Shown: positions 6,006-33,755 of the stretch, one piece after another
How positions within the stretch are numbered: the stretch's first letter is position 1
How the letters are laid out: each line of letters begins with the position of its first letter
Assembly: GCA_903913865.1 (NCBI GenBank)
Contig: CAIWMU010000031.1
Location: forward strand, 1 to 45,503
Length of the DNA stretch: 45,503 nt
Direction: 5' to 3'
Origin: an uncultured Verrucomicrobia subdivision 3 bacterium
GTDB taxonomy: Bacteria > Verrucomicrobiota > Verrucomicrobiia > Limisphaerales > UBA8199
The notes under the pieces: generated by a model
Told to the model about the DNA's origin: nothing
Seen by the model: only the letters and a program-made list of their open reading frames with translations
Databases searched by the model: none
Program-made: the position numbers and the translations under genes

Positions 6006-7565
6006 TTATTGGGCGGGAGGTATCTTCCCGCCCTCCACAGGGGAGTCCTCTGACGAACGTCCCCGAAAGGTCGCGAGCAACACACCCAGCCTGTCCAACT
6101 CCAACCGGGCGGTGGATGCCGGGTCCGGGCTGGCGTAGCGGTTGAGCATGAGCGAAAAAACCAGCTGTTCCCCGGACTCGCTCTTGATATAGCCCGAAAG
6201 GCTGCTCGCCCAGCGGAGCGTGCCTGTTTTGGCACGCATGTTCCCGGCAGCGGCAGTGTTCTTGAAACGGTTCCGCAAAGTCCCATCCACCCCGGCCACT
6301 GGCAGCGCAGAGACATATGCCTCACTCGCGGGATGCCGCCACATGTGGCGCAGCAGATCCACCGTTGCCCGGGCCGTGGTTAGATTGTTCCGGGATAAGC
6401 CAGACCCCTCCTCAAACTGGACATCCCCGGGAGCCAGGCCCACCCGCTTAACAAATCGATTCAGTTCGCGGATGCCAAGATCCTCGGACGTTCCCGCCTG
6501 ATCCCCCCGTCCCTGCTCTCCCACATGCGCCAGCAGCAGGTCTGTATACAGGTTTTGGGAGGGCTTCTGGACCTCCCTGGCCAGTTCCGCCATCGTCGGA
6601 GAATCCACCCCGCCCAGTTCCACCCAACCCTCCCGCTCGCAGGAACTGGTCTGCCCCGGCTCCCAATCCTTCACCACCGGGGGGCCATCCACTTTGATGC
6701 CCTTCCGCTGCATCGCCTTCCGCAACAATTCCACAAACAGGGCGGCGGGATGATGCACCGTCACCACAGTCTTGTAGGGTGACTCCCCCACCGCCACCCC
6801 GCCTGAAACCAGAACCCGGTTGCTTCCCGGCTCACGCTGCAATTGAATTCCCGATTTGGTTCCCGCCGCCCCGGTGCAGGTCCGGTTGGAGACCACTATC
6901 ACCGACGTCACCGGGCGCAAAACCACAACACAGGGCTTTCCCGGGGATGCTGCGGGCAGAACCTCCATATCCACCACATTGTCATTTACCGTCAGTGCCG
7001 AAATCTCCGCCCCATAATACTCCTGCGCGTCATCCCAGGCCCAACCGGAACCCAGGGCCGGGCCCCGGAAGTAACTCCCATCCCCAACAATCGAGCCGCT
7101 CACCCGCCGCACACCTGCCGCAGCAAGGCTCGATGCCAGTTGATCGAAAGCCTGATCCAGATCACCGTGCGACCGGGCGTTGAAGGTCGGATCCCCCCGC
7201 CCGAACACAACCAGATCCCCATGGATTCTTCCTTTCTTGTCAGGTCGTGCACGGGCATACAGGGATGTGCGGATGCGGTGGTCACAGCCCAGACGATCCA
7301 ATGCCAGACCGATGGTGTAGAGCTTCGAGTTTGAGGCCGGGCTCAACAGCTTTTGAGGATTGTGCTCAAAGAGGGTTCTGCCCGTGTCGAGGGATGCCAC
7401 TTTCACCCCCCAGAGGGCTCCGTTGAACTTTGGCTCCCCCACCAACTCAGAAAGGCGATCCCGTAGTGCCTGCAGGGTCTCCGGACCCTGAACCGGCTGC
7501 GACCATCCCCCACTGGGAATCAGCGTGGCAACCATGAGAACCACCAAAAAGCAGAAGCGCCTCAT
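6006..7565 (-). CDS. dacB: D-alanyl-D-alanine carboxypeptidase/endopeptidase, PBP4 (DacB) type
   Basis: A 519-residue periplasmic penicillin-binding protein (peptidase family S13) trimming or cleaving peptidoglycan peptides. I chose the start MRRFCFLVVL, 15 residues inside the longest frame, because it opens a clean signal peptide (1-22). The active-site triad is complete: S78-N-S-K81 (SxxK), S391-R-N393 (SxN) in EEGSGLSRNNLT, and K446-T-G448 in AKTGTLRWASSLSGY. A large domain is inserted between the first two motifs, as is usual for DacB. It is transcribed alone on the minus strand, divergent from rplU and convergent with the radical SAM gene. Confidence 0.92.
   Translation of the reverse strand: MRRFCFLVVLMVATLIPSGGWSQPVQGPETLQALRDRLSELVGEPKFNGALWGVKVASLDTGRTLFEHNPQKLLSPASNSKLYTIGLALDRLGCDHRIRTSLYARARPDKKGRIHGDLVVFGRGDPTFNARSHGDLDQAFDQLASSLAAAGVRRVSGSIVGDGSYFRGPALGSGWAWDDAQEYYGAEISALTVNDNVVDMEVLPAASPGKPCVVVLRPVTSVIVVSNRTCTGAAGTKSGIQLQREPGSNRVLVSGGVAVGESPYKTVVTVHHPAALFVELLRKAMQRKGIKVDGPPVVKDWEPGQTSSCEREGWVELGGVDSPTMAELAREVQKPSQNLYTDLLLAHVGEQGRGDQAGTSEDLGIRELNRFVKRVGLAPGDVQFEEGSGLSRNNLTTARATVDLLRHMWRHPASEAYVSALPVAGVDGTLRNRFKNTAAAGNMRAKTGTLRWASSLSGYIKSESGEQLVFSLMLNRYASPDPASTARLELDRLGVLLATFRGRSSEDSPVEGGKIPPAQ
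6011..6033. terminator. GC-rich hairpin at a convergent gene junction
   Basis: GGGCGGGA and TCCCGCCC form an 8-bp perfect stem around a 7-nt loop. It lies in the last codons of dacB, just past the radical SAM stop. No T-run follows on either strand, so it would be a weak or Rho-assisted terminator at best. Confidence 0.4.
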
Positions 7566-10051: not shown

Positions 10052-10438
10052 TTGGTTCCAATTCAACAATTTCTGCCTGACTCATCCCTGCACCGGGTGG
10101 GATAGTCTCCATTTCCGGACATCCGCCTCCCCTGCAGAGGTCAACATATCACTCATTTGTCAAAGCGCCATCGGGTGTGAGAGTGTCCGCACCCTTCCGC
10201 CCTCTAATGTTGAAAACAGGCAAACTGAATTCTGCGAAGGCAAGCCGCCCCCCCATCCAAAGCCATTGCTCCTGCCGGACCGGGGGGCTGAAGCTGCCCG
10301 AACCAGCGCCGAAACCCTGCATTTTCACCAAAAACGGGACCTCCCGACCCACCCGCCCTTTTTCGAATAACGAAATGGTTTTGACTCCAGGCCGGATTCC
10401 ACTATGATTTGCGGCTCTTAATTTGAGGATCCGTTGAT
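10052..10438. other. Intergenic region upstream of pgk
   Basis: About 390 bp. The distal end carries the pgk promoter described separately. The rest is GC-rich with open frames on both strands (for example 10149-10445 minus and 9906-10370 plus) that overlap each other and show no recognisable protein. I see no RNA gene. Confidence 0.5.
10381..10408 (+). promoter_or_regulatory. Sigma-70-like promoter of pgk
   Basis: TTGACT at 10381-10386, a 16-bp spacer, then TATGAT at 10403-10408. Transcription would begin near 10415, about 24 nt before the pgk ATG. This is the best promoter match seen in the window and probably drives pgk-tpiA-secG. Confidence 0.65.
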
Positions 10439-11692
10439 ATGGCAAAATTAACTGTCAGAGATTTGAACACCCGCGGCAAACGCGTCTTTGTGCGCGTGGA
10501 TTACAACGTCCCGCTCGAGGAAAAAGACGGCACAATGGTCATCACGGATGACACACGCATCCGCGAAACCCTGCCGACCCTCCGTGCCCTCACGGAACAG
10601 GGAGCCAAACTGATCCTCGCAGCCCACCTTGGTCGGCCGAAGGGCAAAAAGGAGCCCTCCATGTCCCTGCGCCCCGTGGCCCAGGCTCTGGCAGACCTGC
10701 TGGGTCGCCCTGTCGCTTTCGTCGATGATTGCATCGGCCAGCAGGCCGTCAAAACCATCGCCGCGATGCAGACCGGCGATGTGGTCCTCCTGGAGAACGT
10801 CCGCTATTACAACGAAGAGGAGGCCAACGACCCCGCATTTGCTGCGAAGCTGGCCGAACTGGCCGACATCTATGTAAACGATGCGTTTGGTGCCGCCCAT
10901 CGTGCCCACGCTTCCACCGAAGGCATCGCGCGGGTAATTGCCGCACGGGGCGGTCAGTGCGCAGCCGGTCTCCTGATGGAGCGCGAACTCAAGTTTCTCG
11001 GTGATGAGCTGGAAAATCCCACCCGCCCCTTCACAGTCATTCTCGGCGGTGCCAAGGTCTCGGACAAGATCCAGGTCATTGACCGCCTTCTGGAAAAGGC
11101 CGACACGATCTTGATTGGCGGTGCCATGGCTTACACCTTCCGGCTGGCCCAGGGCTTCACCACAGGGAAATCCCTCGTGGAGGCGGACAAGACGGATACC
11201 GCAAAGTTAGCGCTGGAAAAAGCCGCGAAGCTGGGTGTTAAATTCCTTCTGCCCGTCGATGATGTTGTGGCTGTTCCGGTTAAGACCGACAAGCTGGACA
11301 AAAAGGGCAAGGCGATCATTGAGTTTCAGGATGTGCGGGCGAACCCGGACCAGAACTGCCCCGCCGACATGGCAGGCTTGGATATCGGTCCCGCCACGAT
11401 CAAGCTCTATTCGGATGAAGTTGCCAAGGCGCGAACCATCCTTTGGAACGGGCCCATGGGCCTGTTTGAAGACAAGCGTTTTGCGGAAGGCACGTTTGCC
11501 GTCGCCCGGGCGGTTGCAGAAGTCACGCAGACCGGCGCCAAGAGCATCATCGGGGGTGGAGATAGCGTCAAAGCCATCAACAAGGCAAAGCTCGGCGACA
11601 AGGTCACCTTCATGAGCACGGGTGGCGGGGCAAGTCTCGAATTTTTGGAAGGTCAGGTGCTCCCCGGGGTTGCGGCATTGAGCGAGAAGTAA
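10439..11692 (+). CDS. pgk: Phosphoglycerate kinase
   Basis: A 417-residue glycolytic enzyme converting 1,3-bisphosphoglycerate and ADP to 3-phosphoglycerate and ATP. Signature stretches are present: KRVFVRVDYNVPL near the N-terminus, LAAHLGRPKG, DDCIG, LLENVRYYNEEE, YVNDAFGAAHRAHAS, the hinge-region GGAKVSDKI, and the nucleotide-binding GGGDSVKAI and MSTGGGASLEFLEG. The length is typical of the family. It is the first gene of a pgk-tpiA-secG run; gap (glyceraldehyde-3-phosphate dehydrogenase) is not adjacent. Confidence 0.98.
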   Translation: MAKLTVRDLNTRGKRVFVRVDYNVPLEEKDGTMVITDDTRIRETLPTLRALTEQGAKLILAAHLGRPKGKKEPSMSLRPVAQALADLLGRPVAFVDDCIGQQAVKTIAAMQTGDVVLLENVRYYNEEEANDPAFAAKLAELADIYVNDAFGAAHRAHASTEGIARVIAARGGQCAAGLLMERELKFLGDELENPTRPFTVILGGAKVSDKIQVIDRLLEKADTILIGGAMAYTFRLAQGFTTGKSLVEADKTDTAKLALEKAAKLGVKFLLPVDDVVAVPVKTDKLDKKGKAIIEFQDVRANPDQNCPADMAGLDIGPATIKLYSDEVAKARTILWNGPMGLFEDKRFAEGTFAVARAVAEVTQTGAKSIIGGGDSVKAINKAKLGDKVTFMSTGGGASLEFLEGQVLPGVAALSEK

Positions 11693-12953: not shown

Positions 12954-14630
12954 TTGAGACCATTCTCAAAAAACGCTCTCCGGAGTTCCCGGAGGGCGTT
13001 TTCATTTGTGGCATTTACTTCCGCCGCATTCTGCGGGTTTCTTCTCCTCATCCTTACAGGCTGTGCCCGCCCCGAGCCTCAGGCCGACCTCGTCATCGCA
13101 AATGGCGGGGAACCGGAATCCCTCGACCCGGCGATCGTCACTTCATACGCAGATATGCGGGTCACAAAAGCCCTCTTCGAGGGGCTTCTCCATCTGGATG
13201 GAATCGACGGTCGCCCCGTCCCCGGCCTGGCATCCCATTGGGAGACCTCCCCCGATAAAACAATCTACACCTTCCATCTTCGATCCAACCTCCTCTGGTC
13301 CACCGGGGAGCCCATCACAGCGGAGGATGTTTACTTCTCCTGGAAGCGGGCACTCGACCCGGCCACCGCTTCCGACTATGCCGGCCAGCTCTTTTACATT
13401 CGAAAGGCTGAGGAGTTCTACACCGGCACGGTCAAGGATTTCAATGAGGTGGGCATCCGTGTGCTGGATCCCCTGACGTTTCAGGTTGAATTAAACTCCC
13501 CCCTGGCCTTCTTTCTGGATCTGTGCTGCTTTCCCACTTTGGCCGTCGTCCCACGGAAAACCATTCAGACGGGCGGCGATCTCTGGGTCAGCGAGCGCCC
13601 TCTGCCCTCCAGTGGTCCCTATTGCCTCGTTTACTGGCGCCTCAATGACCGCATCCGCCTGCGCAAAAATCCGGCCTACTGGGATGCCTCACGGACCCGG
13701 AGCGAACTCATTGACATCCTGCCAACCGGATCCCCGAATGTCGCCCTCAACCTCTACGAGACCGGCATCGCCGATATCGTGTGGGACAAGGATCTGGTTC
13801 CCACGGAACTGCTGGATGTCCTCAAACTCAGGCCGGACTTCCACACCTTCAACTACCTCGGCACCTACTTTTACCGGTTCAACGTCACCCATAAACCGCT
13901 CGATGATCCCCGCATCCGGCGGGCATTCGCCCTCGCGACGGATCGGGAACGCATCGTTCACAAGCTGACGCAGGGAGGGGAGAAGCCCGCCCACCAGTTT
14001 GTTCCCTCCGGGGTTGCCAATTACACCCCGCCAGCCGGATTGCCGTTCGCTCCCATCCGGGCCCGCGAACTCCTGGCCGCCGCCGGATACCCGGGTGGAC
14101 GTGATTTCCCGACCCTCCAGTTCACCTTTTTCTCCTCAGCGGGCGGGGCCGCAAAACTGCAGGGAAAAATCGCCATTGAACTGCAGCAAATGTGGCGGGA
14201 GAACCTGGGTGTCCGCATCGAACTGCGCCAGATCGAGCGCAAGATTTTCTACAATGCCCAATCCCGGCTCGACTACGAAATCTGCGCTTCAAGCTGGGTG
14301 GGGGATTACAACGATGCGAACACATTTCTCGACCTCTACCTCGCCAACAGCGGCAACAACCGCACCGGCTGGAAGAACCCCCGCTACGATGACCTGATCC
14401 ATCGCGCAAACGCGCAGACGGACATCCCTGCGCGCGCAGCGTTGCTGCGGCAGGCCGAGACACTTCTAGTTGAGGAGGATGTCCCGGTTGTCCCCATTTT
14501 CTTCTACGCGGGCTTCAACTGTTTCGATCCGAAAAAAGTGGGTGGTCTCCACCAGAACCTGCTGGATGAGCACCCCTTGCAGGACCTCTACCGCATCACC
14601 CCCGGTGGTGGGCGTAAACCGGGGGAATGA
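12954..14630 (+). CDS. oppA: Peptide ABC transporter substrate-binding lipoprotein (OppA-like)
   Basis: An extracytoplasmic oligopeptide-binding protein of family SBP_bac_5, up to 558 residues. The lipobox LTGC is followed by ARPEPQADLVIANGGEPESLDPA, then ALFEGLLHLDG and HLRSNLLWSTGEPITAEDVYFSW, all typical of OppA. The start is ambiguous. A TTG at 12954 gives a well-formed signal peptide with a basic n-region (RSSRR) but places the secG terminator inside the coding sequence. A GTG at 13008 avoids the hairpin but lacks positive charges. The oppB start follows the stop by 4 nt. Cognate ATPases are not in the window. Confidence 0.9.
   Translation: MRPFSKNALRSSRRAFSFVAFTSAAFCGFLLLILTGCARPEPQADLVIANGGEPESLDPAIVTSYADMRVTKALFEGLLHLDGIDGRPVPGLASHWETSPDKTIYTFHLRSNLLWSTGEPITAEDVYFSWKRALDPATASDYAGQLFYIRKAEEFYTGTVKDFNEVGIRVLDPLTFQVELNSPLAFFLDLCCFPTLAVVPRKTIQTGGDLWVSERPLPSSGPYCLVYWRLNDRIRLRKNPAYWDASRTRSELIDILPTGSPNVALNLYETGIADIVWDKDLVPTELLDVLKLRPDFHTFNYLGTYFYRFNVTHKPLDDPRIRRAFALATDRERIVHKLTQGGEKPAHQFVPSGVANYTPPAGLPFAPIRARELLAAAGYPGGRDFPTLQFTFFSSAGGAAKLQGKIAIELQQMWRENLGVRIELRQIERKIFYNAQSRLDYEICASSWVGDYNDANTFLDLYLANSGNNRTGWKNPRYDDLIHRANAQTDIPARAALLRQAETLLVEEDVPVVPIFFYAGFNCFDPKKVGGLHQNLLDEHPLQDLYRITPGGGRKPGE
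12970..13002. terminator. Strong hairpin after secG, overlapping the oppA 5' region
   Basis: A 14-bp stem (12970-12983 with 12989-13002, one G-T wobble) and a 5-nt loop AGTTC. A-runs on the left arm and T-runs on the right make it a bidirectional-type intrinsic terminator. It lies inside the TTG-started form of oppA. This suggests either a GTG start for oppA or attenuation of the opp-dnaG segment. Confidence 0.75.
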
Positions 14631-16590: not shown

Positions 16591-18393
16591 GTGGCCGGCT
16601 TTTTTTCCCAATCAACCATCGATCGGGTGCGCAGCGCGAGTGACATCGTGGATGTCATTGGCGCCTCCATCCCATTGAAGCGGGCCGGGGCCAACTTCCA
16701 GGCGATCTGCCCTTTTCACAAGGAGAAAACCCCCAGCTTCAACGTCAACCCGCAGAAGCAGATATTTTATTGCTTCGGCTGCCACAAGGGCGGGGATGTG
16801 TTCGCTTTTGTCCGCGATTTCGAAGCGGTGGATTTTCCGGAAGCGGTCCGGCGTTTGGCGGAGCGGGCTAGAATTCCCCTTGATTACGAGAAGGGCGGCC
16901 CGGATCAGGAATCCCGGGACCTGAAGGATCAATTGCTCAAGCTCCACGAGCAGATCACAACCCGCTGGCAATCCGCCCTCCTGAATGATGCCGGGGGCGG
17001 GATCGCACGTGAATACCTGAAACGGCGCGGGGTCTCGGGCGAGGCCGTCACCCTCTTCCGCCTTGGCTACGCCCCGGATCTCTGGGATGACACCGTCACC
17101 TGGGCCCGCTCCAAGGGGCACCCCACAACCCTCGTCGAAAAGGCCGGACTCATTCTCGCCCGGGATGGCGGCGGCCATTACGACCGCTTCAGGGGCCGCC
17201 TCATGTTCCCCATCTGCGATGAACAGGGCCGGGTGATCGGCTTCAGCGGCCGCATTCTTGCCGGGGATGAGAAGACGGCAAAATACGTCAACTCCCCCGA
17301 AACACCCATCTTCACCAAGAGCAAGGTGTTCTTCGGGTTGGACAAGACGAAGCGGGCCATCCTGGATGCCGGGAGTGCCATCATCTGCGAAGGCCAGCTG
17401 GATCTGATCGCCTGCTTCATGGCCGGGGTCCAGAACATCGTCGCACCCCAGGGCACCGCTTTCACCGCCGATCACGCCCGCATCATCAAGCGCTACACCG
17501 GCGAGGTGGTCATGTGCTTTGACTCGGACAACGCCGGTCAGAACGCCACCATGCGCGCATTGGACAGCCTGCTGGCAGCGGGACTCGCGATCAAGGTGGC
17601 CACCGTCCCGCGCCCCCACGACCCGGACAGCCTCATCAAAGCCTCGGGCCCGGATGCCTTTCGACAGGTCATCTCCCAGGCGGAGGGGTTCTTTGATTTT
17701 CTCCTCAACCGCCTCTGCCAGATGAACGACATCCGTTCCGACAAGGGCCGTCTGGACGTGATCCGCGAAATGTCCGAAGCCCTGCTGAAAACCGGCAGCG
17801 CCGTCCTCCTCGACACCTACGCCCAGAAAACCGCCATGCGGCTGGGCGTCACCACCGAGGCGCTGCGAACCGAATTCGCAAAAGCGGGCAAACACATCCC
17901 GCAGCAGCGGGAACAGGCAGACCCGGAGGATCAACCGGATTACACGGAACCCACCCCCCCATCGGAGCCGGAGTGGTGGCTCCTCAAAATCCTATTCCTC
18001 CACGACGATCTCCCCCCATGGATCCGTTCCACACTGGACCCGGCATGGATCCAGCACCCGTTGGTCCGCGGGATCGTGGCCGCCCGGTTCAAAAGCGATG
18101 AAGAAGGCACTTGGGCCGGTCTCGCTACGTTCCTGAACACCCTCGCCCCGGAACAGCAATCCCTTCTCACCCAGGCAGCCGTGGGGGATCGTCCTATTCC
18201 CACTGCCGAACGCCAATTGGTGGATCTGGTCACCCGCATGCGCAACCAGCACTTGGACCGGGAGATCGCGGAGTTGCGGGCCATCCTCAACCACCCAAAC
18301 ACCTCCGATGTCGCCCGCATGGAACTGATCCAGCATCAGGCCAGCCTCCGCACCGCAAAAACAGTCCGCATCACCCCCTCACCACAAGAGTAA
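16591..18393 (+). CDS. dnaG: DNA primase
   Basis: A 600-residue replicative primase that makes RNA primers for DNA synthesis. It starts at GTG with MAGFFSQSTIDRVRSASDIVDVI, the family N-terminus. The CHC2 zinc site is C40, H43, C61 and C64. The TOPRIM domain carries E268 (ICEGQLDLIA) and D311/D313 (CFDSDNAG), which bind catalytic metals. The C-terminal helicase-binding region (about 455-600) is divergent. Its last 95 or so residues occur a second time, in diverged form, at 22821-23117. No Shine-Dalgarno is visible. Confidence 0.97.
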   Translation: MAGFFSQSTIDRVRSASDIVDVIGASIPLKRAGANFQAICPFHKEKTPSFNVNPQKQIFYCFGCHKGGDVFAFVRDFEAVDFPEAVRRLAERARIPLDYEKGGPDQESRDLKDQLLKLHEQITTRWQSALLNDAGGGIAREYLKRRGVSGEAVTLFRLGYAPDLWDDTVTWARSKGHPTTLVEKAGLILARDGGGHYDRFRGRLMFPICDEQGRVIGFSGRILAGDEKTAKYVNSPETPIFTKSKVFFGLDKTKRAILDAGSAIICEGQLDLIACFMAGVQNIVAPQGTAFTADHARIIKRYTGEVVMCFDSDNAGQNATMRALDSLLAAGLAIKVATVPRPHDPDSLIKASGPDAFRQVISQAEGFFDFLLNRLCQMNDIRSDKGRLDVIREMSEALLKTGSAVLLDTYAQKTAMRLGVTTEALRTEFAKAGKHIPQQREQADPEDQPDYTEPTPPSEPEWWLLKILFLHDDLPPWIRSTLDPAWIQHPLVRGIVAARFKSDEEGTWAGLATFLNTLAPEQQSLLTQAAVGDRPIPTAERQLVDLVTRMRNQHLDREIAELRAILNHPNTSDVARMELIQHQASLRTAKTVRITPSPQE

Positions 18394-19103
18394 GCCCTGT
18401 CGTATGCCGTCCCCGGCGTTACCCAGGGCATCCGGCATGAATCCCCGGCAACGCTGAAGGCAGCCCTCCAGAGTGCCAAGGTCCCAGCAGAATTACCCCA
18501 CCCCGCGTCCTCGTGCGGCTCTTTTGTGATCCTTGCTGAAGTCCAGTTGGTAGTGTGAAAGGGGCCCCCCCGAAACCCCACAGGAAACACCGTCGTTTCA
18601 GTCCTCTTTGTGACAGGCAGAATACGCAGGATTTCCGGCCTTTTTCCAGTGATGTTTCCACCTCCGACATGCCACTCCCGCTTGCGTGATTTTCACGCAA
18701 AAATGCGTGAATTTCACGCATTGGCATTTTTGGCAGAGATAAAACTGCGTTTTTATTGGGGTTTTTAGCTGCACATTAGCTGGCACGAGATATGCTTTAT
18801 TGGGAATTTGATGAACCTTGAACCCGTGCATGACGCGAAAACCAGTGCCAAATTCACGCTCTGGCGGGTCTCAGTTTCATGCCATGTTTTTCGTGCAAAA
18901 TCCCCTGGCCGGATGTCGCCCCTGCACCGGATAACCCACCCTCGAAATCTGGATGGAACCAGCCGCCCCTTACAGGGTGCTCCCTCCGGTTTCAACCATA
19001 CCGCCCGGGGCGATGCAGGATCCGCCTCCTTCCCGGGTTCCAGTGGACCCGGGGCCATGTCATTCCCAACCAAAAGAAAACACCAGCAACCAAACCCATA
19101 AAA
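18394..19103. other. Intergenic region between dnaG and the giant repeat gene
   Basis: 710 bp without a convincing gene. It contains ATGCCG/CGGCAT inverted copies just after dnaG, the tandem palindromes at 18682-18720, and an AT-rich stretch at 18730-18800 that may hold a promoter. A Cys-rich minus-strand frame (18598-18831) crosses the palindromes and looks accidental. The frame of the giant protein is open back to 18879, but those residues are not signal-peptide-like. Confidence 0.5.
18682..18720. promoter_or_regulatory. Two tandem operator-like palindromes
   Basis: Site 1 is TTGCGTGA-TTT-TCACGCAA (18682-18700). Site 2 is TGCGTGAA-T-TTCACGCA (18704-18720). Both share the half-site TGCGTGA. 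Their centres are about 21 bp apart, two helical turns, so two dimers would sit on the same DNA face. They lie about 385 bp upstream of the giant secreted protein, and could serve it or an unseen promoter nearby. Confidence 0.6.
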
Positions 19104-22100
19104 ATGCAGACCTCCCTGATTCTTGCAACCCTCCTGACGGCCATTTCAATGAGTGGCCAGCCCCAACAGGTTCGCCCCTCCGAGTGCCAGCCCCGGATGC
19201 AGGAGGCGGATGCCCAGCCGATTCCACTGACCACCCCACAGCAAGCCAATGTGGCCGTGGGAAAAGGCCAACCCATCGCCTGGGACGATGTGGGCAGGAA
19301 GGCTACGTTGGACTATTCGGGTGATGGTCTCTCGGTGTTCACCGCCGGCGGCGCAGTTCGGATGCGATGCAACTTTCAGAAACTGGAAGGGGAAGCCACC
19401 GCCGGGGGCTTGTGGATCCTGTCCACCGCCACGCCTGGCGCGGTCGAGCGGTTCCGTCTGGTGGCCAGTGGCATCAATGGGGTGGCGCTCCCGGTGGAGG
19501 GTGTGGTGGCGATGAACAACCAGAGGGCACGCTTCATCCGACCCGGGCTGACGGAGGAATACTCTGTGAGCGTGGACGGCGTCCGCCAGGATTTCGTGGT
19601 GGAGGAACGCCCCACCGGCAGTGGCGAACTGCGCCTGGAACTTGCGCTCACCGGCGCACGGGCCTCGGCCCGACCCGAAGGCGCACGGCTGGTGATGGAT
19701 GGCTCGGGGCGCAGGCTGGCATACACCCGGTTGAACGTGTTGGATGCCAAAGGCAAACCGTTGCCGGCCCGCATCGTCGTGACGCATCCCTCTCCTGCAG
19801 AAGGCATTCCGGCCTCCGGTGCCGGGAGCCGGTTGCCAGTCCACCCCGCTGCTTTGACAGTGGTGGTGAACGATTCCGGGGCCAATTACCCTGTCCGGAT
19901 TGATCCCACATTCAGCGACGACAACTGGACCAGCATGGACGGCCTTCCAGGTGCGAACGACGCCGTTCATGCCGCGGCAGTGGACGATTCCGGAAACCTC
20001 TATATTGGGGGAAGCTTCACTGCGGTCGCGCACATCGCCGCCAATCATGTGGCCCGTTGGGACGGCTCCGGTTGGTCGGCTCTGGGACCGGGTGTGGACG
20101 GCACCGTCACCTCCCTTGCGGTGTCGGGCGGTGATGTTTACGCGGGTGGCAGTTTCACAAACGCGGGCGGCATGACGGCCCTTCGGATTGCCAGATGGAA
20201 CGGGACCAATTGGTTGGCTCTGGGGGCGGGGCTGAGCGGAACGGTCAGTGCACTGGCAATTTCGGGCAGTGATCTTTACGTGGGAGGCAGTTTCACAAAT
20301 GCCGGGGGAATCGCGGCCCTTCGGATTGCCAAATGGGACGGGAGCGTGTGGTCGGGTCTGGGGGCGGGGTTGAACAGTGGTGTTCGTGCTCTGGCAGTAT
20401 CGGGCACCCATCTGTTCGTGGCAGGATATTTCACGACCGCAGGCGGGATCACGGCAAACCATGTTGCCAGATGGGACGGGACAAACTGGTCGGCCCTGGC
20501 CTCGGGCCTGAACAGTGCTGCTTATGCACTGGCGGTGTCGGGATCTGACCTTTACGTGGGCGGTTATTTCACATCCGCAGGGGTCGCTGGGGCCAACAAC
20601 GTGGCCAAATGGGACGGCACCAGTTGGTCGGCTCTGGGGACGGGGCTTGGCAGCCAGGTGAACGCCCTGGCAGTGTCGGGCAATGATCTCTACGCGGGCG
20701 GCATGTTCACGACTGCAGGCGGAATCGGGGCCGGATATGCCGCCAAATGGGACGGGACCAATTGGGCGGCCCTCGGCGCGGGGCTGAACGGCATGGTTAA
20801 TGCCCTGGCGTTTTCGGGCAATGATCTCTATGTCGGTGGCGTTTTCTCGATCGCAGGCGGTTTCGCGGCCTTCCAGGTTGCCAAATTTGACGGAAGCGGT
20901 TGGTCCCCCATGGGCTCTGGACTGAACGGCCAGGTCACTGCGCTGGCGGTTTCGGGCACGGATCTTTACCTGGGTGGCACCTTCTGGACTGTGGGCGCTA
21001 TCACTGCAAACCACATCGCCAAATGGGACGGAACCAACTGGTCGGCCCTTGGGTCCGGGCTGAACGGCGATGTTAACACACTGGCCGTGTCCGGCACGGA
21101 TCTATATGTGGGCGGTAGTTTCTCGCAGGCAGGCGGAATCACATCCCACGCGTTGGCCAAATGGAACGGAACCAATTGGTCGGCTTTGAGTCTGATACGT
21201 TGGGACACTGTTTATGCACTTCTTTTCTCGGGCAGCAATCTTTATGCAGGCGGCACCTTCAAGATCCCGGGCCCAACCCGGGGAACCAATCTGGCCAAAT
21301 GGGACGGGACGAATTGGTCGCCCCTGGGGATACGGCCGAACGGCCCTGTTTATGCCCTGGCAGTTTCGGGCAGTGACCTGTATGCCGGAGGCAAATTCAC
21401 GAGCGTGGGCGGGGTCGCAGCCACCAATGTGGCCAAATTGAGCGGGACCAACTGGTCAGCCTTGGGGACAGGGACGAGGGGCCCTGTTTATGCGCTCGCA
21501 GCATCCGGCGGTATTCTTTACGCGGGAGGGGCGTTCACCAACACGGGAGCGTTCCCGGCCAAAAATGTGGCAAGCTGGGATGGGAACAGTTGGTCTCCCC
21601 TGGGGACGGGGGTGAAGGGCACTGTCAATGCCCTGGGGGTGTCGGGGGTGTATCTTTATGTTGGCGGCACCTTTACCAACGCGGGCGGCATCGCCGCCAG
21701 CCGGATAGCCAGATGGAATGGAAGCAATTGGTCAGCCTTGGGATCAGGAGTGAACAACCCTGTATTAGCCCTGGCCATGTCGGACACTGCTGTTTACCTA
21801 AGCGGCACTTTCACGACAGCCGGGGGAAAGGTCTCCGCTTACGTGGCCAAACTGCCTGAGGGCCGCCAGGCGCCCGCCACGATCAACCTGACCCAACTGA
21901 ACCAGATCTACAACGGCACCGCCAGGTGCGCTTCCGCCGCCACATTGCCACCGGATCTGGCCGTCACCCTGACCTATGACGGCACAGCCACCTGCCCAAC
22001 CAACGCCGGAACTTACACAGTGGTGGGCACGGTGAACGATCCGGATTACACGGGAACCGTGACAAACATGCTGGTGGTGGCGAAGGCAACTCTTTTTGCC

Positions 22101-22811
22101 GCCGGGGAGAGCCGGTCGCGCCTGTATGGATCCTTGAACCCACACATGATTGTGCGCTACACAGGGTTCGTAAACGGGGAGACATCCTCCGTATTGACCA
22201 CCCGCCCCGTCGCACAGACCTTCGCAACCCGCTCCAGTCCGGTGGGGGATTATGAAATAACAGTCACCGGTGGGACCGCCGCCAACTACGATGTGGTGCC
22301 TGTCTCAGGCGTTTTCACCGTCACCCGTGCGCCCTTGACCGTTTACTGTGACAACCAGACCCGGTTTGAAGGGCAGGAAAATCCTGTGCTGACCGGGACG
22401 GTGACCGGTGTGATTCCTGGAGATGCCATTACTGCGGGATATACGACGACCGCCCTCAAACAAAGCCCGGCCGGAACATACCCGATCCTGCCTGTTTTCA
22501 TGGATCCGGAGGGGAAACTTGGAAACTACAACGTCACGACGAACGCCGGGGTGCTGACCGTGAAGGCGGCTGTAACCGGGGGAATGCTGTCTGTGGATGC
22601 ACGAGACATCCAATTGCCCGGGCCTGAAGGCGGGGTGCGGATCCGGCTGCAAGGGACAGCCAGCCAGGCCTACCGGATTGAGGTGTCCGGGAATCTGGAC
22701 CTCTGGGATGTTCTCACCCGGGGTGTGGCCGGGACGAATGGCGTGTTCGATGTGCGGGACACCCAATCGGGCAGTTTCCCCCACCGCTTTTATAGGGCGG
22801 TTTCCGAGTAG
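19104..22811 (+). CDS. Giant secreted repeat protein with propeller-like and MBG domains
   Basis: A 1235-residue exported protein of unknown function, starting at the ATG at 19104, which opens a signal peptide (MQTSLILATLLTAISMSGQ). Residues about 20-270 form a mixed domain. About 272-919 hold 14 tandem units of roughly 45 residues with the consensus LAVSGSDLYVGGxFTxAGG / VAKWDGTNWSALGxGLNG, resembling beta-propeller blades (enough for two seven-bladed rings). About 926-1155 hold MBG-type Ig-like repeats (YGSLNPHMIVRYTGFVNGE and related). The C-terminal 80 residues (YRIEVSGNLDLWDVLTRG ending HRFYRAVSE) form a small beta domain also present in the BspA-like gene at 43311. The gene ends against a second copy of the dnaG tail. 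A role in surface adhesion or binding is inference. Confidence 0.85.
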   Translation: MQTSLILATLLTAISMSGQPQQVRPSECQPRMQEADAQPIPLTTPQQANVAVGKGQPIAWDDVGRKATLDYSGDGLSVFTAGGAVRMRCNFQKLEGEATAGGLWILSTATPGAVERFRLVASGINGVALPVEGVVAMNNQRARFIRPGLTEEYSVSVDGVRQDFVVEERPTGSGELRLELALTGARASARPEGARLVMDGSGRRLAYTRLNVLDAKGKPLPARIVVTHPSPAEGIPASGAGSRLPVHPAALTVVVNDSGANYPVRIDPTFSDDNWTSMDGLPGANDAVHAAAVDDSGNLYIGGSFTAVAHIAANHVARWDGSGWSALGPGVDGTVTSLAVSGGDVYAGGSFTNAGGMTALRIARWNGTNWLALGAGLSGTVSALAISGSDLYVGGSFTNAGGIAALRIAKWDGSVWSGLGAGLNSGVRALAVSGTHLFVAGYFTTAGGITANHVARWDGTNWSALASGLNSAAYALAVSGSDLYVGGYFTSAGVAGANNVAKWDGTSWSALGTGLGSQVNALAVSGNDLYAGGMFTTAGGIGAGYAAKWDGTNWAALGAGLNGMVNALAFSGNDLYVGGVFSIAGGFAAFQVAKFDGSGWSPMGSGLNGQVTALAVSGTDLYLGGTFWTVGAITANHIAKWDGTNWSALGSGLNGDVNTLAVSGTDLYVGGSFSQAGGITSHALAKWNGTNWSALSLIRWDTVYALLFSGSNLYAGGTFKIPGPTRGTNLAKWDGTNWSPLGIRPNGPVYALAVSGSDLYAGGKFTSVGGVAATNVAKLSGTNWSALGTGTRGPVYALAASGGILYAGGAFTNTGAFPAKNVASWDGNSWSPLGTGVKGTVNALGVSGVYLYVGGTFTNAGGIAASRIARWNGSNWSALGSGVNNPVLALAMSDTAVYLSGTFTTAGGKVSAYVAKLPEGRQAPATINLTQLNQIYNGTARCASAATLPPDLAVTLTYDGTATCPTNAGTYTVVGTVNDPDYTGTVTNMLVVAKATLFAAGESRSRLYGSLNPHMIVRYTGFVNGETSSVLTTRPVAQTFATRSSPVGDYEITVTGGTAANYDVVPVSGVFTVTRAPLTVYCDNQTRFEGQENPVLTGTVTGVIPGDAITAGYTTTALKQSPAGTYPILPVFMDPEGKLGNYNVTTNAGVLTVKAAVTGGMLSVDARDIQLPGPEGGVRIRLQGTASQAYRIEVSGNLDLWDVLTRGVAGTNGVFDVRDTQSGSFPHRFYRAVSE
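20010..21855 (+). repeat. Tandem coding repeats of about 135 bp, 14 units
   Basis: The repeats encode the LYVGGSFT/AKWDGTNWSAL units of the giant protein. They are visibly similar at DNA level, for example AAATGGGACGGGACCAA and close variants recurring in most units. Copy number could therefore change by slippage or recombination. Confidence 0.85.
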
Positions 22812-22820
22812 CTCCGGTGC

Positions 22821-23117
22821 CGATGGACGTGGCATGTGGGCCGGTCTCGGCTCATTCCTGAACACCCTCACGCCGGATCATCAATCCCTACTGACTGAAT
22901 CCGCCGTGGGGGATCGCCCCATCTCCAACTCCGACCCCCAGCTGATGGATCTGGTCACCCGCATGAGGAACCAGCACCAGGACCGGGAGATCGCCGAATT
23001 GCGCGCCATCCTCAACCACCCCAACACCTCCGATGTCGCCCGCATGGAACTGATCCACCACCAGGCCAGCCTACGCACCTCAAAATCCATCCCCATCACC
23101 CCTCCCAACAACAGTAG
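22821..23117 (+). pseudogene. Second, diverged copy of the dnaG 3' end
   Basis: The frame encodes a stretch matching the DnaG C-terminus from W508. Of 89 aligned residues (WAGL...ITP) about 70 are identical by my count, including an unbroken run from DREIAELR to ARMELI. Several nucleotide differences in that run are synonymous (GCG/GCC, GAG/GAA, CGG/CGC, CCA/CCC). Near the end, a one-base offset relative to dnaG removes the expected stop, and the frame reads on to 23223. Similarity persists for perhaps 30 nt past the dnaG stop. It begins within about 10 nt of the giant gene's stop. No primase core is present, so it is a fragment. Confidence 0.85.
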
Positions 23118-23715
23118 GCACTGGCAACTGCCGTCCACGGAAACGCCGAAACCGCGACGATTCAAACCGCTCCAGTGCCCTTTCCTAGACCATATCCACC
23201 GCATCGTGCCGGGACAAAGGTGACATTGGCACGGGAGTCGAGTTGGTCCGTGCGTTGGCGCAAGCCCGCCCCTTGTTGGGCACAAGCCTGCCCAGGTGCT
23301 TTGGGAGCGGTGGGGCAGTCCTCAAATATCTCCCGCCGAGGTGGTCGTGCCACACCGGCGTTACAAAGAACACATTACTGTATGCTGTTAATCGTCTGAT
23401 TGTAAACAGTGTTTAGATTTTTGAAGAAAAAAACAGGCATTGACAACGACCTCCATCAATTTCAAACTGTGTTCAAATCCAAGCATGCAACCCGTGACCA
23501 TCATCTGTCTTGTGAGTTACAGCCCGCGAAAAGGGCACCGGCCATCAAGAGCAGTGAATGGGGCGTGGGGTTCGATCATGCCACGATCTTGTTATTGTGG
23601 CTGGCAGGCCGTTTGGATGTGTGGGTCTCTCCGGAAGGCGGGCTCGACCACTGTGTCTGAAATGACCCTCCCGGCACCACAACCACTCCCAACAACGACA
23701 CACCAAGGCTCCTGA
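23118..23715. other. Non-coding or decayed region
   Basis: About 600 bp between the dnaG-tail copy and the next gene. An AT-rich segment (23380-23450) lies in the middle. Short frames exist on both strands (for example 23409-23660 plus, ending LLLWLAGRLDVWVSPEGG) but none has a recognisable family or good start. It may hold remnants of the event that duplicated the dnaG tail. Confidence 0.45.
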
Positions 23716-24720
23716 ATGAGAATATACAAAATCCGGCTCCTGAGCTGCCTCCCAATGTTCTGCCTTCTCCAAATGGTCTCAACCGCAGGGCAGGCGGCGG
23801 ATGGGGCATTCGAAACCTTTCAACGGTTTGTGAATGGGCAGATACCGGTGGCGGAAGTGGTGGTGCACCGGCAAATAGCATCCACCAACGGCCATGTGAC
23901 CAACCATGAATGGTGGCGTTGCGGATGGCAATCCAACACATGGTATTGCCAGCGGCTGACACCCGCCCCGAACAACCCTGCAAAGCTTGTTCCATTGGCC
24001 AGAAATGAAGTCGTTGGGGAATCCCGCACACATGGCTGGATCATCAGCGACCAGAATGTTCATCTGGTGGCCAGGACAAATCTGGCAAACAGCATTTTGG
24101 ACACGCACGGCGCGTTTCCGCGCGATCTGCTGTTTCGGGCAATTTCCCTGGGAATCCCACGCATAATGAAAATGCGAAAAATTGAGGACGCGCCGGTGGT
24201 CTGGAACCATCTGGAATTCCAAACGACGGTTACCACCGCCCGGGGCGCATCCGGCATGGTCGTGAGCAATTCCCCTCTTGTGGGAAAGGTTCTGCTCAAT
24301 GCTCGCGGGTGCCCCGGTTCAGCGGAATTTCCGAATCTTCCAACGCCGGGCCGGACCGTTGTCGTTTATGAATACAACGGAGAAAACGAGGGGATCCCAA
24401 GCGCCTTCATTGTGAGATATCCCGACGCTGAATATCGTTACGAGTTCCTCTCTTTGGATTTGATGTCCCCGGAATATGCGAAAGGAAACGAATACGTGCC
24501 ATCCATGTTCGCTGATCCGAAACTTGAGCGCTTTGTGACAATTTGGACAAACAGCAACTCCTACTCGCTGGTAAAAGGGAAGATGCGCCCCAATTTCGGC
24601 GGAAAGATCGCCGGCCAGGACACACACCATGTCGGCTTGATCATCCTGATCTCGTTGGCAGCCGTTTCTGGCATTACCCTGACGCTTTGGTACAGGCGTT
24701 CGGGGCACGGTGCAAGGTGA
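23716..24720 (+). CDS. Exported, C-terminally anchored protein of unknown function
   Basis: A 334-residue protein with a signal peptide (about 1-28, ending AGQAA) and a single C-terminal membrane helix (about 304-326, VGLIILISLAAVSGITLTLWYRR) followed by a short basic tail. The bulk would therefore face the periplasm. The middle is rich in aromatic and beta-forming residues and has two nearby cysteines (RCGWQSNTWYCQR). I recognise no family. It starts at ATG 23716, and the glycosyltransferase fusion follows 170 nt after its stop. The pairing with that membrane enzyme and the giant secreted protein may be meaningful. Confidence 0.7.
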   Translation: MRIYKIRLLSCLPMFCLLQMVSTAGQAADGAFETFQRFVNGQIPVAEVVVHRQIASTNGHVTNHEWWRCGWQSNTWYCQRLTPAPNNPAKLVPLARNEVVGESRTHGWIISDQNVHLVARTNLANSILDTHGAFPRDLLFRAISLGIPRIMKMRKIEDAPVVWNHLEFQTTVTTARGASGMVVSNSPLVGKVLLNARGCPGSAEFPNLPTPGRTVVVYEYNGENEGIPSAFIVRYPDAEYRYEFLSLDLMSPEYAKGNEYVPSMFADPKLERFVTIWTNSNSYSLVKGKMRPNFGGKIAGQDTHHVGLIILISLAAVSGITLTLWYRRSGHGAR

Positions 24721-24890
24721 CACCCGCAAGAACGACCCCCACAATTTCACGAGCAACGCTCCTTGCTCCCACTGCATGCTTCAGGGGCGATGCCACCAGG
24801 CCTGTTACCTGAACCGAAAAAAACTTGAGCGCAACAAAGCCAACCTCCCGGACAGCCGCGCAGAACGGAGCTCGGGATTCCGCCCACCCA

Positions 24891-33089: not shown

Positions 33090-33755
33090 ATGACTCCCCA
33101 CCGATTGAATAAACCCATCCAAGTTGCACTGGTCGAGGATGATCCTGGAGTGCGGGCCAATCTCGCCGCCATGATCAACGGGGCCCCCGGCTTCCGCTGT
33201 CAGGCTGCCTATGCGGATGGTGCCTCCGCCCTGATAGGCATCCCCGCCAACTGCCCCGATGTCGTCCTCATGGACATCAACATGCCGGGAATGCTGGGAA
33301 CCGATTGTGTGCGACAGCTAAAGACTCTGGCCCCCGGACTTCCCGTGCTCATGCTCACGGTTTACGATGACAGTGAACAGATTTTCAAGTCCCTCATGGC
33401 AGGGGCCACCGGCTATCTCCTGAAGCGCACCTCCCGGGAAAAACTTCTCGAAGCCATCAAGGAAACCACCAACGGCGGGGCACCCATGTCCCGCCAGATC
33501 GCCCGGCGTGTGGTGCAGTTCTTCCACCAGATGGACCAGACCACCCCCGCAGCCAGGCCACCGGTGCACCTGGACGGCCTGACCGACCGGGAGGAGCAGG
33601 TGCTGGCGCTCCTCGCCAAGGGACATTCCTACAAGGAAATCGCCGACCTCCTGAACATCAGCTTCGAAACCGTCCGCACCCACGTCCGCAGCATTTACGA
33701 CAAGCTGCACGTGCACAGCCGCACGGAGGCCACGCTGAAATACCTCGGCAGGTAG
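33090..33755 (+). CDS. NarL/FixJ-type response regulator
   Basis: A 221-residue cytoplasmic regulator. The receiver domain (1-125) has the acidic pair near D17/D18, the phosphoacceptor D62 in DVVLMDINMPG, the conserved Thr in VLMLTVYDD, and the Lys in GATGYLLKR. The LuxR-type helix-turn-helix spans about 163-212 (LTDREEQVLALLAKGHSYKEIADLLNI, then SFETVRTHVRSIYDKL). It is surely the partner of the adjacent kinase and may control the surrounding catabolic genes, although no operator repeats were identified. Confidence 0.95.
   Translation: MTPHRLNKPIQVALVEDDPGVRANLAAMINGAPGFRCQAAYADGASALIGIPANCPDVVLMDINMPGMLGTDCVRQLKTLAPGLPVLMLTVYDDSEQIFKSLMAGATGYLLKRTSREKLLEAIKETTNGGAPMSRQIARRVVQFFHQMDQTTPAARPPVHLDGLTDREEQVLALLAKGHSYKEIADLLNISFETVRTHVRSIYDKLHVHSRTEATLKYLGR

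What the first reader, a model, noticed from the sequence alone, without database searches (positions are those of the whole stretch)
16591..23117. Second, diverged dnaG 3' end flanks a giant repeat gene
Seen: the last 95 or so codons of dnaG recur 4.7 kb downstream, starting within about 10 nt of the stop of a 1235-residue secreted protein. About 70 of 89 residues match. The most conserved core is identical in protein while several codons differ synonymously. Inference: the copies diverged under selection as parts of working primases in separate lineages, not by decay after a local duplication. This fits an acquired island (18394 to about 22820) that brought or displaced a primase 3' end, as integrating elements do at conserved gene ends. 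No integrase is visible, so homologous recombination with foreign DNA is the alternative.
Basis: partly seen in the sequence, partly recalled or inferred. Interest (0 to 1): 0.8.

Follow-up and report, generated by a model that had tools for sequence, protein, structure and literature searches.

The report
Leftover second end of primase gene
A bacterium carries, a few thousand bases after its normal DNA-primase gene, the broken-off and slightly different tail of another primase gene, most likely a scar of DNA exchange with a close relative rather than a new kind of system.

Summary
The last 98 codons of dnaG plus 23 nt (18096-18416) recur at 22821-23140: 83% of bases, 68 of 88 compared residues. 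No other dnaG piece was found in this genome. Of 320 genomes of the order, five have two tail matches; only this one has both on one contig. The copies diverged under purifying selection: NG86 dN/dS 0.26; copy-2 branch omega 0.14-0.15, neutrality rejected. Each keeps family-invariant residues the other lost. So the second tail was probably the end of a working primase for most of its history; it is now half a domain with its stop out of frame. The junction is resolved to about 2 bp: similarity to a paralogue of the giant gene ends at 22822, dnaG similarity begins at 22821. No integrase among 29 window proteins scanned. Best explanation: exchange with a sister lineage, homologous on one side and illegitimate on the other, stranding a dnaG tail. 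Which tail is resident, and whether the giant gene is foreign, stays open: its paralogues and promoter look native. Known kind of event; modest interest.

The parts
16591..18393 (+). dnaG, complete DNA primase gene (600 aa, GTG start)
   Evidence: Pfam DNAG_N, Zn_ribbon_DnaG, Toprim, DnaB_bind; only full-length dnaG match in the genome
18096..18416 (+). tail copy 1: dnaG codon 503 to stop, plus 23 nt downstream
   Evidence: matches 22821-23140 at 83%
18684..18719 (+). two palindromes GCGTGANNNTCACGC, 21 bp centre to centre; likely activator sites upstream of the giant gene (inference)
   Evidence: 8 sites in the genome against 0 for the reversed control pattern
18781..18796 (+). sigma-54-like -24/-12 element TGGCACGAGATATGCT
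   Evidence: same arrangement at 4 of the 5 places in the genome that carry the palindrome; the sigma-54 consensus is recalled
19104..22811 (+). giant gene: 1235-aa protein with a hydrophobic N-terminus (by eye), beta-propeller repeats and MBG domains
   Evidence: Pfam Rax2 propeller, MBG_2, MBG_3; paralogous stretches in the genome
22821..22822 (+). junction: end of the giant gene's 3' flank and start of dnaG similarity, 2-bp overlap
   Evidence: similarity to the C180 paralogue ends at 22822; dnaG similarity starts at CGATG, 22821
22821..23140 (+). tail copy 2: displaced or imported dnaG 3' end, without the first 502 codons
   Evidence: no Pfam match on its own
23095..23115 (+). end of copy 2, one base out of register with dnaG in a run of C; the stop opposite dnaG's stop is not in frame
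   Evidence: alignment, translation
22834..23223 (+). possible reading frame of copy 2 from its own ATG (129 codons); no evidence that it is used

Best explanation
Copy 2 is the 3' end of a dnaG allele from a sister lineage, or the resident tail pushed aside by such an allele. Incoming DNA from a close relative recombined by homology on one side and was joined illegitimately, at about 2 bp of overlap, on the other (homology-facilitated illegitimate recombination). The result is one whole dnaG, the giant gene, and a stranded dnaG tail that starts in mid-domain. SHOWN: the two tails, the base-level junction, divergence under selection, no second full dnaG found in the genome, no recombinase among the proteins scanned. 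INFERRED: the route (one homologous and one illegitimate crossover) and the donor. OPEN: which tail is the resident one, and whether the giant gene came with it. Copy 2 is probably a non-functional remnant now.
For: Omega on the copy-2 branch is 0.14-0.15, equal to background. With that branch fixed neutral lnL falls from -1616.37 to -1619.77. Under a clock lnL is -1617.13 at the best neutral fraction of copy 2's time (0.12), -1619.87 at 0.5 and -1624.8 for fully neutral; no neutral time at all costs only 0.94. Each copy keeps residues that are invariant in the 7 relatives compared and lost in the other: copy 2 keeps N538 and P593, copy 1 keeps P537, so neither derives from the other as it is now. 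Junction between the giant gene's 3' flank and mid-dnaG resolved to 2 bp. Similarity between the tails stops 23 nt after the stop codon; the DNA beyond aligns no better than shuffled, as expected if the tails come from different neighbourhoods. No recombinase among the 29 proteins scanned. The only genome of 320 with two tail matches on one contig.
Against: No genome with either tail in its earlier setting was found: nothing in genome contigs (2 scans), viral contigs, phages or plasmids; those tools warn that records very near this genome may be left out, so this absence is weak. The copies are sisters relative to the only congener, so an old in-lineage duplication kept under selection is not excluded. 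Only 88 codons were analysed, with a home-made codon model on a fixed tree. The giant gene shows no foreign signature.
Confidence: 0.6

Rival explanations
1. Old duplication inside the lineage: a second dnaG (or tail) arose in an ancestor, stayed under selection for a long time as part of a working gene, and was recently cut down to a tail.
For: The copies are nearest relatives of each other; purifying selection on both branches fits a second primase that worked until recently.
Against: In the 58 genomes (this one and 57 relatives) no row shows a second near-full-length dnaG match beside the first; no trace of the 5' part next to copy 2; the flanking DNA beyond 23 nt is not duplicated.
Confidence: 0.2
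2. Site-specific integration at the dnaG 3' end, as e14 does at icd: the element supplied a new tail (copy 1) and pushed the old one (copy 2) to its far end; the integrase has been lost.
For: Same layout as e14/icd (passages of PMC6379469); a 13-bp identical block TGGGCCGGTCTCG near the start of both tails.
Against: No integrase or other mobile gene among the 29 proteins scanned; similarity already starts upstream of that block; no other of 320 genomes has two tail matches on one contig.
Confidence: 0.07
3. Copy 2 is a working small protein: it gained its own ATG (22834) just after the giant gene's stop and binds the replicative helicase.
For: Frame open for 129 codons, omega about 0.14; ATG where dnaG has ACT; the model of this frame keeps four helices, mean pLDDT 79.
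Against: The break falls near the end of the third of seven helices of the helicase-binding bundle, so about half the domain is missing; copy 2 loses the family-invariant P537 and has Q at 555 where the 7 relatives have hydrophobic residues; its end is out of frame; no good ribosome site seen by eye.
Confidence: 0.05
4. Assembly artefact: a mis-join of contigs from two related strains.
For: Fragmented assembly of 267 contigs; reads could not be inspected.
Against: A mis-join at a shared word would swap the tails, not place both on one contig 4.7 kb apart; the junction has only about 2 bp of overlap.
Confidence: 0.06

Closest known systems
Homology-facilitated illegitimate recombination (HFIR)
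   Different: Known from naturally competent species and E. coli conjugation in the laboratory; the original Acinetobacter, Pseudomonas and pneumococcus papers were seen only as references. Here it is inferred from one genome.
Displaced 3' gene parts in V. cholerae T6SS effector/immunity arrays and rhs loci
   Same: The authors propose that new DNA enters by an HFIR-like event and shifts old 3' gene parts downstream (passages of PMC5361080).
   Different: There variable effector and immunity genes; here a housekeeping primase whose stranded tail has no evident use.
Prophage e14 at E. coli icd
   Same: The inserted DNA supplies the gene's 3' end and a 163-bp displaced icd piece remains (passages of PMC6379469).
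   Different: e14 integrates site-specifically; no integrase was found here, and the join is not at a long identical core.

Membership tests
HFIR-type insertion | One junction without significant homology | tested here: met
   About 2 bp of overlap at 22821-22822
HFIR-type insertion | Other end anchored by homology to a divergent allele | tested here: inconclusive
   Two divergent alleles of the dnaG tail are present, but the crossover point cannot be placed without a closer relative
HFIR-type insertion | Donor or recipient state observed in a relative | tested here: not met
   No match in genome contigs (very near records may be left out there); the only congener returned, G001, has other neighbours of dnaG
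Site-specific integrative element at a gene 3' end (e14-like) | Integrase gene next to an attachment site | tested here: not met
   None among 29 window proteins scanned with Pfam
Site-specific integrative element at a gene 3' end (e14-like) | Identical core at the start of both tails | tested here: inconclusive
   13-bp identical block, but similarity starts before it
Neutral local duplication / plain pseudogene | dN/dS near 1 on the branch of the spare copy | tested here: not met
   0.14-0.15; neutrality rejected
DnaG helicase-binding domain, stand-alone | Whole helical domain encoded | tested here: not met
   In the model of dnaG residues 405-600 the break (codon 503) lies near the end of the third of the seven helices from residue 459 on; the nearest folds are DnaG/DnaB helicase-binding domains, weakly (best E 6.4e-3, none <= 0.001)

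The most novel reading that the evidence does not exclude
The dnaG 3' end served as a homology anchor by which relatives exchange large surface-protein genes, and the stranded tail, with its newly gained start codon behind the giant gene, is translated as a small partial helicase-binding peptide.
Probability: 0.05. Interest if true: 0.6.

Novelty: new member of a known kind. Interest (0 to 1): 0.3.

Why it matters
It is a natural scar, resolved to the base on one side, that shows how the end of a housekeeping gene can be exchanged between sister lineages while a large secreted-protein gene sits in between. If confirmed it would be direct evidence of chromosomal gene exchange with an illegitimate join in this group. 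It does not point to a new system.

Tried and rejected
Mobile element: no integrase, transposase or relaxase among 29 window proteins scanned with Pfam (one LuxR-type response regulator, 33090-33755, also matches a resolvase helix-turn-helix model below its cut-off); no tRNA; no Rfam match at gathering score. ORFs not scanned were not tested.

Recurrence: a direct-repeat self-comparison of 14 stretches (the window, 11 of this genome, 2 of G001) found repeats outside single big ORFs in 6 besides the window (C180, C223, C249, C190, C217, C162). Three were read at base level: an intergenic repeat with a terminator-like hairpin (C180), a shared prepilin-like motif (C249) and a duplicated 5' gene region (C162). 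Those of C223, C190, C217 and the further ones of C249 and C162 were not read. Among those read none is a diverged tail of a housekeeping gene.

Other genomes with two tail matches at E <= 1e-5: 5 of 320 including this one (where only the best 15 candidates per genome were scored for most genomes, so a weak second tail could be missed, and the list of matches was cut although the counts per genome were shown). G059 has two contigs with equal scores (looks duplicated; not aligned). G030's second match runs to a contig end. G210's two matches are complementary parts at contig ends. G174 has a 252-bp copy at 98% on another contig. None is like this case.

Synteny for an empty site: opp operon and dnaG lie on different contigs in G001; relatives of the downstream genes 23716 and 24825 lie side by side in G004 and G006 stretches without dnaG. 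Polarity of the exchange from composition: GC3 is 0.74 for copy 1, 0.82 for copy 2, 0.79 for the dnaG 5' part, 0.70 for the giant gene, 0.63-0.79 for the others measured; not decisive. A faster copy 2 is not significant: lnL -1618.09 with a clock, -1616.38 without.

Papers: no paper for dnaG with partial duplication; 6 for dnaG with integration site, integrase and genomic island, 3 for Verrucomicrobia with illegitimate recombination, listings only, none on this arrangement by title and abstract start.

Full report
WHAT IS THERE. The window is contig C31 of a 6.27-Mb, 267-contig genome. dnaG (16591-18393) is complete. Its last 98 codons (503-600) and 23 nt of its 3' flank recur at 22821-23140, after a 1235-codon gene (19104-22811) with a beta-propeller and MBG domains. 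Over 88 comparable codons 35 differ, 15 of them synonymously; 68 residues are identical (its printed residue numbers are 3 too low, true dnaG numbers are used here). Similarity over 312 columns is 83%. In a direct-repeat self-comparison of the window at E <= 1e-6 it is the only pair outside single big ORFs. No other dnaG or dnaG tail was found in the genome. From its kind of genes the organism is probably one of the Verrucomicrobiota; that label is recalled and comes from no call.

SELECTION. NG86 gives dN 0.120 and dS 0.470 between the copies. A codon model on seven sequences gives omega 0.138-0.148 for the copy-2 branch, the same as background; fixing it at 1 costs 3.4 lnL units (2 delta lnL 6.8, p about 0.009 by chi-square). 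Under a clock, the best fit has copy 2 neutral for 12% of the time since the split; a fraction of 0.4 lies 1.8 units and 0.5 lies 2.7 units below the best, fully neutral 7.7, and no neutral time 0.9. Copy 2 keeps N538 and P593, invariant in the seven relatives compared and replaced in the working dnaG; copy 1 keeps P537, replaced in copy 2. So both probably spent most of their separate history as primase ends. Today copy 2 lacks the first 502 codons and is out of frame at its end. A model of dnaG residues 405-600 puts the break near the end of the third of the seven helices from residue 459 on; the nearest solved folds are DnaG and DnaB helicase-binding domains, weakly (best E 6.4e-3, none at 0.001 or below). 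Copy 2 thus codes for roughly half a domain; its own model keeps four helices with mean pLDDT 79.

JUNCTION. A paralogue of the giant gene on contig C180 matches at 73% from 22104 through the stop to 22822; dnaG similarity starts at CGATG, 22821-22825. Left and right similarities overlap by 2 bp. On the other side, similarity between the tails ends 23 nt after the stop, and what follows aligns no better than shuffled sequence (score 14.5; shuffled mean 14.6; 91 of 200 shuffles reach it). The repeated piece is thus just the tail plus 23 nt.

RELATIVES. The copies are nearer each other (74-76% aa) than to G001 (53-54%), the only congener that the genome search returned. In G001 dnaG lies among other genes, and the opp operon that precedes dnaG here is on another contig. 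Congeners G009 and G012 share dnaG at 81% with no significant similarity past its end in the stretches held, so dnaG's neighbours seem to change readily in this family. Of 320 genomes of the order, 283 have a tail match at E <= 1e-5 and 5 have two; in the other four the two matches lie on different contigs (contig-end splits, an apparent duplicate, or a near-identical fragment). For most genomes only 15 candidates were scored. No match to the tail in genome contigs, viral contigs, phages or plasmids; those searches may leave out records very near this genome.

IS THE ISLAND FOREIGN? Not shown. GC is 58-66% across the giant gene, as in the genes upstream; the stretch just behind copy 2 (23000-24750) is lower, 53-58%. 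GC3 of the giant gene is 0.70 against 0.63-0.79 in the other genes measured. The gene has paralogous stretches in this genome; the best match in G001 is 53% over residues 35-584, i.e. the N-terminal part and propeller repeats. Upstream lie two palindromes GCGTGANNNTCACGC and a sigma-54-like element; the same kind of set occurs at 3 other places in this genome, so its regulation is that of this genome or a close relative.

MECHANISM. The simplest history that gives two selected, diverged tails with a join of 2 bp is an exchange with a sister lineage: homologous pairing on one side, illegitimate join on the other. Either the incoming DNA brought copy 1 and the giant gene and pushed the resident tail (copy 2) aside, or it brought copy 2 and the DNA behind it. 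I cannot tell these apart. Comparable displaced gene ends are proposed for V. cholerae effector arrays and rhs loci (passages of PMC5361080) and described, with site-specific integration, for e14 at icd (passages of PMC6379469). Small duplications without flanking repeats have been seen among pneumococcal transformants (passages of PMC3784515).

VERDICT. A real and clean scar, most likely of recombination, at dnaG. Ordinary in kind, with one informative base-resolved junction.

Noticed in passing
window 18684-18796; C138:3244, C162:28639, C223:18853 (loci L119, L121, L122): A small apparent regulon: one or two palindromes GCGTGANNNTCACGC 51-92 nt before a TGGCAY-N5-ATGCT (sigma-54-like) element at 4 of the 5 places that carry the palindrome; 8 palindromes in the genome, 0 for the reversed control. 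By eye it precedes the giant gene, a prepilin-like gene, another exported protein and a small protein.
   Followed up: partly
L093 (C162) 7016-7410 and 10056-10449: A 395-bp direct repeat (93%) covering the upstream region and start of a gene: the first copy looks like a truncated duplicate of a gene's 5' end.
   Followed up: partly
C180 (L105/L050) 13770-13932 and 17003-17166: An 80%-identical intergenic repeat carrying a terminator-like hairpin, on either side of a 3-kb reading frame.
   Followed up: no
L114 (G174:C132) 429-680: A 252-bp copy of the dnaG 3' end at 98% on a second contig of another genome of the order, preceded by unrelated AT-rich sequence; may be a strain variant or an assembly artefact.
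   Followed up: no
window 16591-18393: In the working dnaG, residues 538 and 593, N and P in all seven relatives compared, are T and R (numbers corrected by 3).
   Followed up: no
window 23000-24750: GC drops to 53-58% just behind copy 2, below the 58-66% of the giant gene and of the genes upstream.
   Followed up: no
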